Assembly (NCBI RefSeq): GCF_000725425.1
Contig: NZ_CP006019.1
Span: 310,001 to 374,000 of the forward strand
Source of the DNA: Palaeococcus pacificus DY20341
GTDB taxonomy: Archaea > Methanobacteriota_B > Thermococci > Thermococcales > Thermococcaceae
DNA length: 64,000 bases
Reading direction: 5' to 3'
Of this stretch, positions 6,531 to 46,000 are shown piece by piece. The notes under the pieces were generated by a model. That model ran no database searches. It saw nothing but the letters and a program-made list of their open reading frames with translations, and was not told the origin of the DNA. Position 1 is the first letter of the stretch; every line of letters starts with the position of its first letter. The translations under genes were made by a program, and so were the position numbers.

Positions 6531-6929
6531 ATGGTCAAGAAGGAATTTGTTTATCGCGGTTACAAGCTTGAGGAACTTTTGAACATGCCCCTTGACAAAG
6601 TAGCTGAGCTCTTTCCCTCAAGGCAGAGGAGGAGCCTTAAGAGGGGCTTTACCCAAGACCAGAAGAAACTCATTAGAAAAATTAGACTTGCTAAGAAGGG
6701 TAAGTATAAAAAGCCAATTAGAACCCACAGCAGGGACATGGTTATCCTCCCAGAGATGGTTGGAATGACAATCCACGTCCACAACGGTAAAGAGTTCGTC
6801 CCAATCGAGATTAAGCCTGAGATGATAGGGCACTACTTGGGAGAGTTTGCCCTAACGAGAAAGATAGTCCAACACGGTTCACCTGGTATGGGTGCTACGA
6901 GGTCATCAATGTTCGTAGCGGTCAAGTGA
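6531..6929 (+). CDS. rps19: 30S ribosomal protein uS19
   Basis: A 132-residue S19 of the small-subunit head, with the usual archaeal N-terminal extension. The conserved core [11 protein letters not shown] (about 84-94) is followed by the [13 protein letters not shown] motif and a terminal [12 protein letters not shown] segment. The Shine-Dalgarno site GAGGTGG is fused to the uL2 stop codon. Its neighbours uL2 and uL22 are in the universal S10-operon order. Confidence 0.98.
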
Positions 6930-6940
6930 GGTGAGTGGAG

Positions 6941-7405
6941 ATGGTTAAGCGCTACTACTCTTTCCAAAATTTTGATCCAGAGAGGATGGCAAAGGCTCAA
7001 GCTAGAGATCTTAGGATGTCACCCAAGCTCTCAATTGAGGTGTGCAATGCTATTAAGGGTATGATGCTCAATGATGCAATCAGGTTCCTTGAGGAAGTCA
7101 TCGAGCTAAAGAGACCTGTTCCACTTAGGAGATTCCACGACTCACAAGGACACAAGAGGGGTAAAGGCTTTGGTCCAGGTAGATATCCAGTTAAGGTCTC
7201 AAAGGCCGTACTAAAGCTCCTCCACAACGTTAAGAACAACGCTGAGCAAAAGGGCCTTGACCCAGACAGGCTTAAGATAGTTCACATAAAGGCTGATAGA
7301 GGACCAAAGCTCCCAGGATACATCCCAAGAGCTTTCGGTAGGGCTACACCATTCAATGAGCAAACAACACACCTTGAAGTTGTAGTTGAGGAGATTAGGG
7401 GGTGA
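6941..7405 (+). CDS. rpl22: 50S ribosomal protein uL22
   Basis: A 154-residue L22, whose beta hairpin lines the exit tunnel. The conserved ARDLRMSPK (about 20-28) and hairpin-containing [15 protein letters not shown]-like region (about 70-82) are visible, and the C-terminal [19 protein letters not shown] is typical of archaea. ATG 6941 is preferred over an in-frame GTG two codons upstream, which lies inside the Shine-Dalgarno stretch. Only 4 nt separate it from uS3. Confidence 0.97.
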
Positions 7406-41427: not shown

Positions 41428-41625
41428 ATGCCCACGGTTATTGTTGAAGGTCCAAAAATAGATGTTGAGAAAAAGAGGGAGCTCGTTAGGAGAATAACAG
41501 AGGTCATTAAAGAGGTGTATGAAATACCCCATGTTACTGTTCTAATAAAAGAGAATCCGCCCGAAAATGTCGGCATTGATGGTGAGCTCCTTTTGGATAA
41601 GAAGAGGGGTGAAGGGGTTGATTAG
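41428..41625 (+). CDS. 4-oxalocrotonate tautomerase family protein
   Basis: A 65-residue tautomerase-fold protein. It starts Met-Pro-Thr, so the catalytic Pro is at position 2 (position 1 after Met removal). The usual VEGPKIDVEKKRELVRRITE helix and HVTVLIKENPPENVG segment (about 36-50) follow. Such enzymes carry out keto-enol tautomerisations or related chemistry; the substrate here is unknown. It overlaps the amidohydrolase start by 8 nt, suggesting a joint catabolic role. Confidence 0.85.
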   Translation: MPTVIVEGPKIDVEKKRELVRRITEVIKEVYEIPHVTVLIKENPPENVGIDGELLLDKKRGEGVD

Positions 41626-43213
41626 GGCATTCGTGAATGGGAAAATCTACGTCTCATTTAATCCTAAGAGGACCGCTGAAGCCCTTTTGGTGGCTTTCGG
41701 TAGAGTTCTTTATGTGGGTTCCAGTGAAAAAGTGGAGAAAATTGCCCAAGAGCTCGGTGGGGAGATCATTGATCTTCAAAGTAAGGTTGTCCTTCCAGGG
41801 TTCATTGATTCTCATATGCACCTCGATGAGCTCGGCATGTCTCTCAATATGGTGGATTTGAGGGGCGTTAGAAGCATAGAGGAGCTTAAGGAGAGGGTTA
41901 AGGGGTATGCCATCAATGCAAGCACAACGTGGATTCTCGGCCACGGCTGGGATCAAGAGCTTTTTGAAGAGAAAAGGTGGCCCACGCGCTGGGACTTGGA
42001 TGAAATGGTTAGAGACAAGCCCGTAATGCTCTCACGTGTTTGCCTTCATGCTGCTGTTCTCAACACAAAGGCCATGGAAATGGCAGGGCTTTTGGATTTG
42101 GATTCTCCAGGCATCATGAGAAACGAGGAGGGAGAACCAACCGGAGTTGTGAAGGAAGAAGCCTTTGAGCTCGCCAGGGAGAAGTTTAAGGAAACGCTGA
42201 CTTTGGAGGACTACAAGCGCTTTATTGAAGATGGTGCTAAGTTTGCCCTCTCAAATGGGGTTACCACAGTGGGCTTTGTGAGTGTTGAGGAAAGCTCGAT
42301 AAATGCTTTGGGTGAATTAAACGCCGAAGGAAGGCTCCCAATAAGGGTTAGAGCTTATCTAGACCCTGGGAGAAGGGAAGTTAGTGAAAGGGGCATGTAT
42401 GGCAACACTGACATCCTCCAGGCTCTCAAAAAGTTGGGGATTAGAAGGGGCTCTGGCGGGGAAAAGCTCAAACTAAATGGCATCAAAATCCTGGCGGATG
42501 GTTCCTTAGGTGCGAGAACTGCCTGGCTATCTAAACCTTATAGCGATGCTCAAACAGAGGGATACCCAAACATAAGCAGGGAAACTCTTGAAACCATCGT
42601 TAAAGAGGCTCATGAGGCTGGTCTCCAGGTTGCGGTTCATGCCATAGGAGATGCCACAATGGACATGATCCTCGATGTGTACGAGCACCTCGAAAATGTA
42701 GAAAAGTTGAGACACCGCATAGAGCATGCTTCTATTTTGAGGGAAGATCAAATTGAGCGCATTTCAAAGCTTGGCGTTGTTCTGGGAGTGCAGCCCCACT
42801 TTATCATAACCGACTGGTGGGTTTTAGAGCGCGTTGGCGAGGAGAGAGCTAAGTGGGTATATCCATTTAAGAGTGCTTTGAAAAAGGGCATTGTGCTCGG
42901 CCTGAGCACGGATTCTCCAATAGAGTCTATTAACCCCTGGGAGACAGTCTATGCCGCGGTAACGCGTGGAAAGTATGAAGAAGTTCCCTTATATAAGCAC
43001 ACTCCAAATGAAGCTTTGACACTAGAGGAAGCTCTGCACGCTTATACACATGGCTCGGCCTACATTTTGGGAGAAGAAAGCGAACTCGGTACGTTGGAAG
43101 AAGGTAAGCTGGCCGACTTCATAGTCGTGGATAGAGATCCATTCGAGGTGGAGGAAAAAGAGCTGAGGAGCATAAGGGTGCTTGGCACTTACGTGGGCGG
43201 AGAGGAATTTTGA
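41618..43213 (+). CDS. YtcJ-like amidohydrolase (metal-dependent TIM barrel)
   Basis: A 531-residue amidohydrolase. The metal-binding DSHMHLDE motif lies at about 65-72, and a conserved DGSLGARTAW is at about 294-303. HAIGDATMDM (about 347-356) and HRIEHASILR (about 369-378) supply the further His ligands, and STDSPIE (about 430-436) the metal Asp. The C-terminus returns to the beta-sandwich (GTLEEGKLADFIVVDRDP). TTG 41618 with GGGGTGAAGG upstream is the start. Substrate unknown; relatives act on N-substituted amides or formamides. Coupled to a tautomerase. Confidence 0.85.
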   Translation: MIRAFVNGKIYVSFNPKRTAEALLVAFGRVLYVGSSEKVEKIAQELGGEIIDLQSKVVLPGFIDSHMHLDELGMSLNMVDLRGVRSIEELKERVKGYAINASTTWILGHGWDQELFEEKRWPTRWDLDEMVRDKPVMLSRVCLHAAVLNTKAMEMAGLLDLDSPGIMRNEEGEPTGVVKEEAFELAREKFKETLTLEDYKRFIEDGAKFALSNGVTTVGFVSVEESSINALGELNAEGRLPIRVRAYLDPGRREVSERGMYGNTDILQALKKLGIRRGSGGEKLKLNGIKILADGSLGARTAWLSKPYSDAQTEGYPNISRETLETIVKEAHEAGLQVAVHAIGDATMDMILDVYEHLENVEKLRHRIEHASILREDQIERISKLGVVLGVQPHFIITDWWVLERVGEERAKWVYPFKSALKKGIVLGLSTDSPIESINPWETVYAAVTRGKYEEVPLYKHTPNEALTLEEALHAYTHGSAYILGEESELGTLEEGKLADFIVVDRDPFEVEEKELRSIRVLGTYVGGEEF

Positions 43214-43295
43214 AGTTTTACTCTCGCTCTTTTCTGCCTTTTGTACATGTCTCTGTAAGTTTAATGATTCCACTTTCTATTGTGGAAAATAGTAA

Positions 43296-43304
43296 ATTTT
43301 ATAT
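43296..43304 (+). promoter_or_regulatory. TATA-like box upstream of the AT-rich trio
   Basis: AATTTTATA after GGAAAATAGT. A start near 43325 leaves about 30 nt before GTG 43355, whose Shine-Dalgarno is GAGGTGA at 43343-43349. Confidence 0.45.
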
Positions 43305-43354
43305 GTCTAAGTTGTATTAATTTACCTAAAATTGGTTGCATTGAGGTGATTACG

Positions 43355-43975
43355 GTGTGGAGGAAATTGTTGGGATTGATGCTTAGTCTACTCGTTTTGA
43401 GTACTGGATTGGTAACTGCAAAACCATCGCAAAGCTCAATAGAACCGCAGGCAGTGGTTGCAGCAGCTCTTGAGGCATATATCACAGGGGATATTGTTGA
43501 TAAGACAATTATCCATCTAATATTCTACGACTATAAACACTATAAAGTGAAGCATAATACTTGGGGATCTATTGTAGTGGGAATAGGAAAACTGCCTATT
43601 GGAGGGTATAAAGTATGGATATCCGTGCCAGATCAGTTGCAGATTGAACCATCAAGATTACAATGGAGATCCAATCCTGTAAAATACGAAGGAACTACAA
43701 AAAAGTGGGGTATTACTTTTCACAAATTTGATATCCAAAACAGCGGATGGGCGATGTCATCATTCAGTGTTCCCATAAAGTTTACAGTAGGAAAGGACAA
43801 AAGTTATGGGATTCTATTACTTGGAGCTCAAAGCTATGATGAGATAGACTCGTTTATAGGAAATGCTGGCACAACACTAATCGGAGCAATCGTAGCGGGA
43901 GTTGCAGGTGCAATTTTAGGGCTTCTAGCAGGTTCAGGAATAAGCTATGATTATGTCAAGATAACTGAAGTTTAG
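43355..43975 (+). CDS. Unrecognised secreted or C-terminally anchored protein
   Basis: A 206-residue protein. I do not recognise it. It has a classical signal peptide (WRKLLGLMLSLLVLSTGLVTAK, about 2-23), then a beta-rich extracellular part (about 24-160; for example SIVVGIGKLPIGGYKVWISV), and a Gly/Ala-rich hydrophobic stretch near the C-terminus (about 168-196: GTTLIGAIVAGVAGAILGLLAG). That last part could be a membrane anchor or a pore-like helix. GTG 43355 follows GAGGTGA. Base composition is AT-rich compared with the flanks. It heads a trio with two membrane proteins; a bacteriocin- or surface-protein role is speculation. Confidence 0.6.
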   Translation: MWRKLLGLMLSLLVLSTGLVTAKPSQSSIEPQAVVAAALEAYITGDIVDKTIIHLIFYDYKHYKVKHNTWGSIVVGIGKLPIGGYKVWISVPDQLQIEPSRLQWRSNPVKYEGTTKKWGITFHKFDIQNSGWAMSSFSVPIKFTVGKDKSYGILLLGAQSYDEIDSFIGNAGTTLIGAIVAGVAGAILGLLAGSGISYDYVKITEV

Positions 43976-43995
43976 CTAAACTTGGAGGGAAATTC

Positions 43996-44184
43996 GTGAG
44001 ATGGACTGGTCGCAACAGACTCCTCTTGGTAGTTGAACTTACTACCCTCATATTATACCTTTTGCCCTTGTTTTTTACATATTTTTCTGTTTATACATAC
44101 CTTGTATTGCCGCTTATTGTTTTCTTAGGGAGAGAATATAAAAATGAGATCAAAAAAATAACAAAAAAACAATCTCGAAATTAA
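43996..44184 (+). CDS. Unrecognised 62-residue two-segment membrane protein
   Basis: A very small membrane protein with two hydrophobic segments (about 9-27 and 29-46) followed by a Lys-rich tail (EIKKITKKQSRN). It starts with GTG 43996, preceded by GGAGGGA. It lies 20 nt after the secreted protein and 1 nt before the next membrane protein, so the three genes are probably one operon. Family unknown. Confidence 0.5.
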   Translation: MRWTGRNRLLLVVELTTLILYLLPLFFTYFSVYTYLVLPLIVFLGREYKNEIKKITKKQSRN

Positions 44185-44185
44185 C

Positions 44186-44815
44186 ATGTCCTTGGAAAAG
44201 AGTGTCAGCTATTACAATACGGTAATATTTAGTACTATCATGCTTTATCTATTCTCAATTTTTTCAGGTTTATATGCGTTGAATATAGACATTTATCAAA
44301 AAGGAGGGATTTTGATTTTTCTATGTGCACTCGGGTATTTCACTCTTAATTTCTCCGCGGTTGTTGTTAAACTTTTTATTGTTTCCGCAAGCCTCTACGC
44401 GCCTTATCTCCTTTCAGTTCTGATGGCAGGTTACACTCAGCTGTTATCTGTTTTATTACTAGGAGGTTTTATTAGAGTGACGTTATGGTTTGCAATTGAG
44501 ATAATATTGCTTAAAATTGTTACTATACCAAAGTCAGGATCAAAACTGAATATCAGTAAACTATTTAATTTTATGCCGTTAGCTTTTGGAGGTTGGTTAG
44601 TTTTTTTCCTGAGATTACTCGACTATTTTATGTTCGGTGGTTTTTTATATTATCGTAGAATCTTTGAGCAGATTCTGGTGATTATGGCATGGATTTTCTC
44701 CTATTACCTGCTAAGCAAAAATATCAATGAACAACTTGGCAATACGCTACTGGCATATTCCTTTAGCATATTAACTGGTACAATAACTTTTGTTTTGCTT
44801 CCACCACCTCTTTAG
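44186..44815 (+). CDS. Unrecognised polytopic membrane protein
   Basis: A 209-residue protein with about six hydrophobic segments (about 12-31, 42-58, 60-80, 84-110, 128-148, 160-178, and possibly a seventh at 186-205). It is rich in Leu, Phe and Tyr and has no recognised motif; a Yip1-like layout is possible but not supported. It ends the AT-rich trio. The following 55 nt separate it from the convergent pepQ gene. Confidence 0.55.
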   Translation: MSLEKSVSYYNTVIFSTIMLYLFSIFSGLYALNIDIYQKGGILIFLCALGYFTLNFSAVVVKLFIVSASLYAPYLLSVLMAGYTQLLSVLLLGGFIRVTLWFAIEIILLKIVTIPKSGSKLNISKLFNFMPLAFGGWLVFFLRLLDYFMFGGFLYYRRIFEQILVIMAWIFSYYLLSKNINEQLGNTLLAYSFSILTGTITFVLLPPPL

Positions 44816-44870
44816 AGTTATTGAATATTTAGTGGCGGTAAAGGAAAATGAGCGCTTAATAATCAAAGGC

Positions 44871-45950
44871 TCAAAGCACTATTAACTCCTTCCCTGCTTT
44901 TGTGAGCCTCTTTCCTTTTCCATTGATTATAGCAACGTCATCCTCGATTCTAACCCCAACTTTGCCAGGAATATAAATACCAGGCTCTATCGTGAACGTC
45001 ATGCCTTCTTCCAATATGGTCTCGCTGTGCTGCGCTATGTATGGTTCTTCATGCACATCTAAGCCCAAGCCATGGCCGGTTCTGTGGATGAAGTACTTTC
45101 CATAACCTTTTTTCGTGATTTCCCCTCTTGCCACAGCATCTATTTCTTTTGCAGTGATTCCTTCCCTAACAGCTTGGACTGCTCTTTCTTGGGCTTCTTT
45201 AATGACGTCATAAACTTCTAAAGCTAGCTCAGAAGGTTTTCCAATCGCTATGGTGCGCGTTATGTCGGAGCAGTAGCCCTTGTACTTAGCTCCATAGTCG
45301 AGAATTACCAAATCCCCCTTCTTGAGCTTCCTATCGCTCGGTGTGTGGTGTGGGTTGGCTCCATTTTCACCAGCTGCCACAATTGGCTCGAATGATATTC
45401 CATCGGCTCTCTCATTTATGAGGTATTCTATGAGCGCCGCCACCTGCTTCTCGCTCATTCCCTCCAAGTCTCTCTCGATGAGCTCATAGAATACCTCATC
45501 CACAGCTTGTGCCGCTTTCTCCATTAGCTTGAGCTCTCCTCTGTCCTTCTTTATCCTCAGCTTTGACGTTAGAGCACTCAAAAGGCCGAGCTCGTAGTCC
45601 ATGAGGATATTTTCAATCTTAACGAGCATCATCGCTGGCATAGTGTCTTCCACTAAAATTTTTCCCCTCCTCAAGTTGAGCTCATCTAAAACGCCTTTTA
45701 AAATGAGGTAGGGATTTTCATCATCACCCCAAAAAATAGCCCTTCCCTCCCAGTTCTCTTTTACTTCATTTTCATAGAGCTTGGGGGCTATGATAACGCT
45801 TTCTCCCTCCCTGTTTAGAGCTAATAAAAATAGCCTTTCGCCTGTGGCAGAGGGATTTAAGCCCGTCAAATAATAAAAGTTCGTGCCCGGCGTTATCAGT
45901 GCTCCCATATAATCGTCCATAAGCCCAACGAGCTTATCAAGCCTGTTCAT
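44871..45950 (-). CDS. pepQ: Xaa-Pro dipeptidase (prolidase)
   Basis: A 359-residue M24 metallopeptidase that cleaves dipeptides with C-terminal proline. The pita-bread domain carries the metal ligands: Asp in ILDYGAKYKG and Asp in YCSDITRT (about 215-233), His in HRTGHGLGLDVHE (about 288-300), and Glu in FTIEPGIYI and VRIEDDVAI (about 318-340). The N-terminal domain is about 125 residues. ATG 45950 with AGGTGG upstream is preferred over GTG 45959. It diverges from the eL15 gene. The length equals characterised Pyrococcus prolidases. Confidence 0.93.
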   Translation of the reverse strand: MNRLDKLVGLMDDYMGALITPGTNFYYLTGLNPSATGERLFLLALNREGESVIIAPKLYENEVKENWEGRAIFWGDDENPYLILKGVLDELNLRRGKILVEDTMPAMMLVKIENILMDYELGLLSALTSKLRIKKDRGELKLMEKAAQAVDEVFYELIERDLEGMSEKQVAALIEYLINERADGISFEPIVAAGENGANPHHTPSDRKLKKGDLVILDYGAKYKGYCSDITRTIAIGKPSELALEVYDVIKEAQERAVQAVREGITAKEIDAVARGEITKKGYGKYFIHRTGHGLGLDVHEEPYIAQHSETILEEGMTFTIEPGIYIPGKVGVRIEDDVAIINGKGKRLTKAGKELIVL

Positions 45951-46000
45951 TTCGACCACCTAAATACCTCATCTCTTGGATGTATTAACTCTTCCGCAAC

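What the first reader, a model, noticed from the sequence alone, without database searches (positions are those of the whole stretch)
43355..44815. AT-rich trio: secreted protein plus two membrane proteins of no recognised family
Three closely spaced genes (gaps of 20 and 1 nt) lie between a catabolic amidohydrolase and pepQ. The first has a signal peptide, a beta-rich outer domain and a Gly/Ala-rich hydrophobic helix near its C-terminus; the second is a 62-residue two-segment membrane protein; the third has about six membrane segments. The stretch is visibly richer in A/T than its flanks. The layout (exported protein followed by small and large membrane proteins) is compatible with an exported toxin or archaeocin with immunity/export partners, or with a surface protein and its anchoring partners. 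It is the best candidate in the window for an undescribed system.
Basis: partly seen in the sequence, partly recalled or inferred. Interest (0 to 1): 0.6.

Follow-up and report, generated by a model that had tools for sequence, protein, structure and literature searches.

The report
Archaeal secreted toxin–immunity-like cassette
A small inserted gene block in a heat-loving archaeon encodes an exported protein and a membrane partner that travel together between species like a toxin and its antidote, and it is one member of a large, apparently undescribed, family of exported proteins that share one leader but carry unrelated bodies.

Summary
The block is real, but it is a gene pair, not a trio. 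In two other Thermococcales genomes the 62-aa and 209-aa ORFs are one 272-aa ORF; in the window a frameshift at a run of seven A's splits it, and the second half lacks a ribosome site. The ~1.67-kb block is the most AT-rich stretch of the window. It is absent from the same convergent site in a congener and in another genus. It was acquired horizontally: P1 is 94% identical to its relative in another genus, while pepQ is 60%. P1 (exported β-sandwich plus Gly/Ala-rich C-terminal helix) and P3 (polytopic membrane protein) match no known family. Across 115 genomes P1 occurs in 22 and P3 in 26; every P1 genome has P3, while P3 also occurs alone, sometimes in tandem, once 99% identical to a paired copy. 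P1 and P3 divergence correlate (Mantel r=0.76). Most P1 relatives carry a near-identical leader (MKWKPLxAVLLGLLMVGVTAGSAxA); leader matches occur in 75 of 94 Thermococcales genomes, on about 19 unrelated exported bodies, and similarity ends sharply at codon 25. Best explanation: a secreted, membrane-active archaeocin-like toxin with its membrane immunity protein. No activity has been shown.

The parts
43201..44867 (.). inserted block, ~1.67 kb, absent from the same convergent gene pair in G002 (same genus) and G080
   Evidence: blastn: window 42804-43200 and 44868-44993 are contiguous in L160 (positions 125/126); near-contiguous in L161; GC 0.358, lowest of the window
43280..43310 (+). possible archaeal promoter region (A/T-rich AAATTTTATATG upstream of P1)
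   Evidence: read by eye from the sequence; not tested
43355..43975 (+). P1: exported protein, 206 aa; diverged leader, beta-sandwich, Gly/Ala-rich C-terminal helix, ends ..SGISYDYVKITEV; predicted toxin
43355..43420 (+). leader of P1 (MWRKLLGLMLSLLVLSTGLVTA), a diverged form of the Thermococcales leader MKWKPLFAVLLGLLMVGVTAGSAMA
   Evidence: (E=0.65 in this genome)
43996..44184 (+). P2: 62-aa ORF = N-terminal piece of the membrane protein
   Evidence: 81% identical to residues 1-59 of the 272-aa ORF of G080
44164..44172 (+). A7 run at the frameshift that separates P2 from P3 (coordinates approximate to 1-2 bases)
44186..44815 (+). P3: 209-aa polytopic membrane protein (C-terminal part of the 272-aa protein), ends VLLPPPL; predicted immunity protein

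Best explanation
The block is a horizontally moving, two-gene secreted-toxin/immunity cassette (archaeocin-like). P1 is exported through its N-terminal leader; its mature part is a beta-sandwich that probably binds a surface structure of competing Thermococcales, and its Gly/Ala-rich or amphipathic C-terminal helix inserts into and damages their membrane. P2P3, a polytopic membrane protein made from the same operon, sits in the producer's membrane and blocks P1. The cassette belongs to an order-wide repertoire in which one leader is joined to many unrelated exported bodies. In this genome P2P3 carries a frameshift, so immunity may be reduced or restored by slippage, or the frameshift may be a sequencing error. 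Shown: gene order, co-occurrence, orphan P3 copies, horizontal transfer, empty site, shared leader. Inferred: export, killing, membrane damage, protection.
For: All P1-bearing genomes carry P3 (22 of 22); 4 genomes have P3 without a full P1, one of them because a contig ends there (Fisher p=7e-20). All 25 P1 genes compared are followed by a P3 on the same strand, and P1 and P3 divergence correlate (Mantel r=0.76, p=2e-4). Orphan intact P3: G080 keeps P2P3 at 99.1% DNA identity to G069 over 1,138 bp with only the last ~26 bp of P1 left; G014, G063, G054 and G081 carry orphan or tandem P3 pairs; G039 has cassettes plus an orphan pair in one array. Horizontal transfer: P1 94% and P3 74% between G000 and G069, pepQ 60%. 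Empty site in G002 and G080. The leader is shared across ~19 unrelated bodies and similarity drops to chance after nt 75. C-terminal hydrophobic or amphipathic segment in the family. The architecture matches a tested archaeal secreted toxin, a signal-peptide protein followed by a short TM gene (SSV9 B310/C108, PMC8628083).
Against: No toxin domain or fold is recognised: the P1 model is weak (pLDDT 58.5) and its best PDB matches are cohesin and carbohydrate-binding-like beta-sandwiches at E about 1e-3, which would equally fit an adhesin or surface protein. P3 has no recognisable fold. The C-terminal segment is only weakly hydrophobic in several relatives. Only 18 of 58 other leader-bearing genes have a clear multi-TM gene directly downstream (19 of 227 controls), so the toxin reading cannot simply be extended to the whole superfamily. 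In the SSV9 analogue the downstream TM gene was not shown to be the immunity factor.
Confidence: 0.6

Rival explanations
1. Surface-display module: P1 is a variable adhesin or self/non-self recognition protein, anchored or exported by the membrane partner, diversified by recombination at the leader.
For: Beta-sandwich similar to cohesins, CBMs and pilin domains; the hydrophobic C-terminal helix could be an anchor; hypervariable surface modules (VARTIG) are described in the same order (PMC8416519).
Against: Orphan and tandem P3 genes without P1, including a 99%-identical intact copy, are not expected of an anchor or export factor; the helix is followed by a conserved polar strand (SG..D...EV), not by a short basic tail.
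Confidence: 0.2
2. Selfish/addiction cassette: P1 and P3 act inside one cell or lineage (loss of P3 kills or stalls the host through residual P1), spreading between species as a mobile element rather than as a weapon.
For: Patchy, recent cross-genus transfer with no integrase and a clean insertion; P3 retained after loss of P1.
Against: P1 has an export leader, and the many unrelated leader-sharing bodies fit competition better than addiction.
Confidence: 0.1
3. Exported signal and membrane sensor: P1 is a protein signal and P2P3 its receptor or modulator.
For: Co-divergence of P1 and P3 is also expected of a signal and its receptor.
Against: No regulator, kinase or transcription factor travels consistently with the pair; P3 alone would be an idle receptor.
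Confidence: 0.05
4. As read in the first stage: three separate proteins here, an exported protein plus a small and a large membrane protein.
For: In most distant relatives the membrane part is indeed two genes (74-132 aa and ~130-200 aa).
Against: In the close relatives (G069, G080) it is one 272-aa ORF, and the window's break lies within it, with no ribosome site before P3.
Confidence: 0.1

Closest known systems
SSV9 B310/C108 secreted toxin locus of Sulfolobus viruses (PMC8628083)
   Same: Signal-peptide protein of ~300 aa followed by a short three-TM gene on one transcript; alleles differ between relatives; B310 was shown to inhibit other cells
   Different: Virus-borne, Sulfolobales; TM gene not shown to give immunity; no shared leader reported; no relative of P1 in viral contigs or phage records
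VARTIG modules of Thermococcales (PMC8416519)
   Same: Same order, hypervariable secreted first gene followed by membrane genes, recombination between species, patchy; its authors compare it with polymorphic toxin systems
   Different: Large multi-Ig proteins (arCOG07710) with a variable C-terminal Ig domain and DNNxxxGG tail; here a constant ~25-aa leader with wholly different bodies; P1 is ~200 aa without an Ig-family match
Polymorphic toxin systems (bacterial and archaeal)
   Same: Constant N-terminal trafficking part joined to different effector bodies; cognate immunity downstream; orphan immunity arrays
   Different: The constant part is only a signal peptide, no large trafficking or repeat domain; no known toxin domain
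Archaeocins (halocin C8, sulfolobicins)
   Same: Exported archaeal antimicrobial proteins; immunity linked to the toxin gene in halocin C8
   Different: Halocin C8 immunity is part of the same precursor protein (as cited in PMC8628083); no Pfam or PDB relative of P1; none described for Thermococcales in the papers I could search

Membership tests
Polymorphic toxin system | conserved N-terminal trafficking region joined to unrelated C-terminal bodies | tested here: met
   leader shared by ~19 unrelated body clusters, identity falls to chance after nt 75; the window's own leader is diverged
Polymorphic toxin system | cognate immunity gene directly downstream, co-varying with the toxin | tested here: met
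   25 of 25 P1 genes followed by P3; Mantel r=0.76; that P3 confers immunity is not shown
Polymorphic toxin system | orphan immunity genes or arrays | tested here: met
   G080, G014, G063, G054, G081, G039
Polymorphic toxin system | recognisable toxin domain | tested here: not met
   no Pfam, NCBIfam, PADLOC or PDB-sequence match for P1 above threshold; so not filed as a member
Archaeocin | secreted antimicrobial activity against related archaea | not testable with these tools
   needs a bench assay
Archaeocin | export signal | tested here: met
   N-terminal K/R, hydrophobic stretch, AxA-like end; leader conserved in family; no dedicated signal-peptide program was run
VARTIG | large Ig-domain protein (arCOG07710) as first gene, C-terminal DNNxxxGG motif | tested here: not met
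   P1 is 206 aa, no Ig-type Pfam match, ends YDYVKITEV
Yip1 membrane-protein family (for P3) | match to PF04893 | tested here: inconclusive
   one of 28 P3-family members at E=1.4e-4, none for the window's P3

The most novel reading that the evidence does not exclude
Thermococcales carry an order-wide, undescribed arsenal of polymorphic secreted toxins in which recombination at a short, DNA-conserved leader swaps entire, mutually unrelated effector bodies between species and genera, each with its own immunity; the window holds one horizontally acquired, partly decayed copy.
Probability: 0.4. Interest if true: 0.85.

Novelty: new variant of a known kind. Interest (0 to 1): 0.62.

Why it matters
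Little is known about how hyperthermophilic archaea fight one another, and I found no described secreted toxin for Thermococcales in the papers I could search. A compact, testable toxin–immunity pair, in an order that includes genetically tractable laboratory species such as Thermococcus kodakarensis and Pyrococcus furiosus (own knowledge), would open that question to direct experiment. The shared leader gives a simple search handle (MKWKPLxAVLLGLLMVGVTAGSAxA) for more than 150 further genes, nearly all without a known family.

Tried and rejected
Three-gene system: rejected for this locus, since P2 and P3 are one ORF in the close relatives. Known family for P1 or P3: Pfam, NCBIfam, PADLOC, PDB sequences and PDB folds gave nothing above threshold; the PdsO (E=0.003) and LeoB (E=0.067) matches to P1 cover the Gly/Ala helix and are probably compositional. 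Viral or plasmid carriage: no relative in viral contigs, phages or plasmids. VARTIG membership: defining features not met. Spread outside Thermococcales: none among the other genomes of the phylum held. Makarova et al. 2019 (mBio, archaeal toxins) is not in the library, so an earlier mention there cannot be excluded.

Full report
What is there. The window lies at 310001-374000 of a 1,859,370-bp, single-contig genome; from its size and small genus it is probably Palaeococcus pacificus, order Thermococcales (my recollection, not tested; all relatives with names are Thermococcus or Thermococcales). Between an amidohydrolase (41567-43213, +) and pepQ (44871-45959, -) are three ORFs: P1 43355-43975 (206 aa, GTG start), P2 43996-44184 (62 aa) and P3 44186-44815 (209 aa). 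The block has GC 0.358 against 0.440 for the window and is the most AT-rich 1,657-bp stretch in it. None of the three matches Pfam.

P2 and P3 are one gene. The closest relatives, in G069 and G080, have a single 272-aa ORF where the window has P2 and P3. Reading the window with one +1 step at CAAT after the A7 run gives ...ITKKHLEINMSLEKSVSYYN..., collinear with ...ITKRHLETNVSLEKTVGYYN.... P1 and P2 have clear ribosome-binding sites (GAGGTG, GGAGGG); P3's ATG has none. In most more distant relatives the membrane part is two genes, a small 74-132-aa protein and a protein of about 130-200 aa, and in a few it is one gene of 269-372 aa; the window's break lies within the fused form of its own subfamily. 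Sequencing error, mutation and slippage cannot be separated here.

It is an acquired insertion. In G002 (same genus) the same flanks are contiguous: window 42804-43200 and 44868-44993 meet at L160 positions 125/126, so ~1.67 kb is extra in the window. G080 (another genus) is also empty at this site. P1 is 94% and P3 74% identical between the window and G069, although pepQ is only 60% identical and no amidohydrolase match was found there, which means recent transfer between genera. G069 and G080, themselves of different genera, share 1,138 bp of the cassette at 99.1% DNA identity. I saw no integrase next to the block; viral contigs, phages and plasmids hold no relative.

P1 and P3 travel together, with an asymmetry. 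A profile of P1 finds full bodies (E<1e-20) in 22 of 115 genomes of the phylum, and a profile of P3 finds 26; all 22 P1 genomes have P3 (Fisher p=7e-20). The remaining P3 genomes are G014, G054, G063 and G035; in G035 the contig ends inside P1. All hits lie in one family, over five genera. All 25 P1 genes compared are followed by P3 on the same strand, and their divergences correlate (Mantel r=0.76, p=2e-4). P3 also occurs alone: in G080 an intact P2P3 with only the last ~26 bp of P1 left; pairs without P1 in G014; two orphan copies next to an unrelated leader-bearing gene in G063; an orphan in G054; an orphan pair behind a complete cassette in G081; and in G039 two cassettes plus an orphan pair in one array. 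Many lone P3 but no lone P1 is what immunity genes look like, and not what an export factor or anchor would look like.

The leader. Most P1 relatives begin with MKWKPLxAVLLGLLMVGVTAGSAxA; in the window/G069 pair the leader is diverged. Searching that 25-residue leader finds matches in 75 of 94 Thermococcales genomes (E<=1), up to 11 per genome. Of 83 leader genes examined, the mature parts fall into 19 clusters without detectable similarity to one another. Between clusters the leader DNA averages 54 of 75 identical bases (up to 71), against 26 of 75 for pairs of other signal-like ORFs; identity is 0.75 over nt 0-66, 0.28 after nt 75, and somewhat raised upstream to about -100 (0.4-0.6). Third codon positions are less conserved (0.60) than first and second (0.78, 0.88), so protein-level constraint contributes, but pairs such as L056 and L124 are nearly identical through the 5' region as well, which suggests recombination at the leader. 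Of 20 representative proteins scanned, one matches a Pfam family above its cut-off (C39-like peptidase, L136) and one a Gly-zipper below it. Only 18 of 58 leader genes outside the P1 cluster have a clear multi-TM gene immediately downstream (controls 19 of 227, p=3e-5; P1 cluster 19 of 20), so what is argued for P1 is only a lead for the others.

Structure. P1 is predicted as a ten-stranded beta-sandwich followed by two helices and a last strand (mean pLDDT 58.5, pTM 0.59, three sequences). Foldseek's best matches are cohesin, carbohydrate-binding and pilin-like sandwiches at E about 1e-3 or worse: a binding-type fold, weakly supported. The C-terminal helix is Gly/Ala-rich and strongly hydrophobic in the window (max 19-residue hydropathy 2.32) and more amphipathic in other branches. 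P3 is all-helical (seven helices, pLDDT 60.7), without a PDB match; one family member touches Yip1 at E=1.4e-4.

Interpretation. The anatomy fits a secreted, membrane-active protein and a membrane immunity protein. The nearest tested system by architecture is the Sulfolobus SSV9 B310 toxin with its downstream three-TM gene (PMC8628083); the nearest described module by taxon is VARTIG (PMC8416519), whose defining features are not met. Main rival: a variable surface or recognition protein. The deciding evidence would be a lawn assay with and without P2P3.

Limits. ORFs were called mechanically; signal peptides and TM segments were judged from hydropathy, not by dedicated predictors; structures rest on three sequences each; the main survey of archaeal toxins (Makarova et al. 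2019) could not be read, so 'undescribed' means not found in what I could search.

Noticed in passing
L060-L149 (leader loci), e.g. L136:497-1765: More than 150 leader matches in Thermococcales; 83 genes read, with ~19 unrelated bodies; one body carries a C39-like peptidase domain (E=4.9e-9), another a Gly-zipper match (L108)
   Followed up: partly
L044, L091, L108, L112, L116, L129, L130, L143: Many leader cassettes sit directly upstream of the same 2'-5' RNA ligase-like gene (ends IYETVARFELAE): a recurrent insertion spot without an obvious integrase
   Followed up: no
L041, L049, L194, L195: A second recurrent spot lies next to a glycine C-acetyltransferase-like gene and/or a GNAT plus tRNA-endonuclease-like pair
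   Followed up: no
L131, L141, L144: A different leader body (176-185 aa) is followed by a conserved set of genes of ~274 and ~262 aa (6 TM), and in two loci ~154 aa: a larger operon of its own
   Followed up: no
L160 and (G002): pepQ pieces are 98% identical to the window while the adjacent amidohydrolase is only 71%: a mosaic or local replacement in one of the two genomes
   Followed up: no
L040, reverse strand 6666-7341: A broken transposase-like gene lies just upstream of the P1 cassette in G069
   Followed up: no
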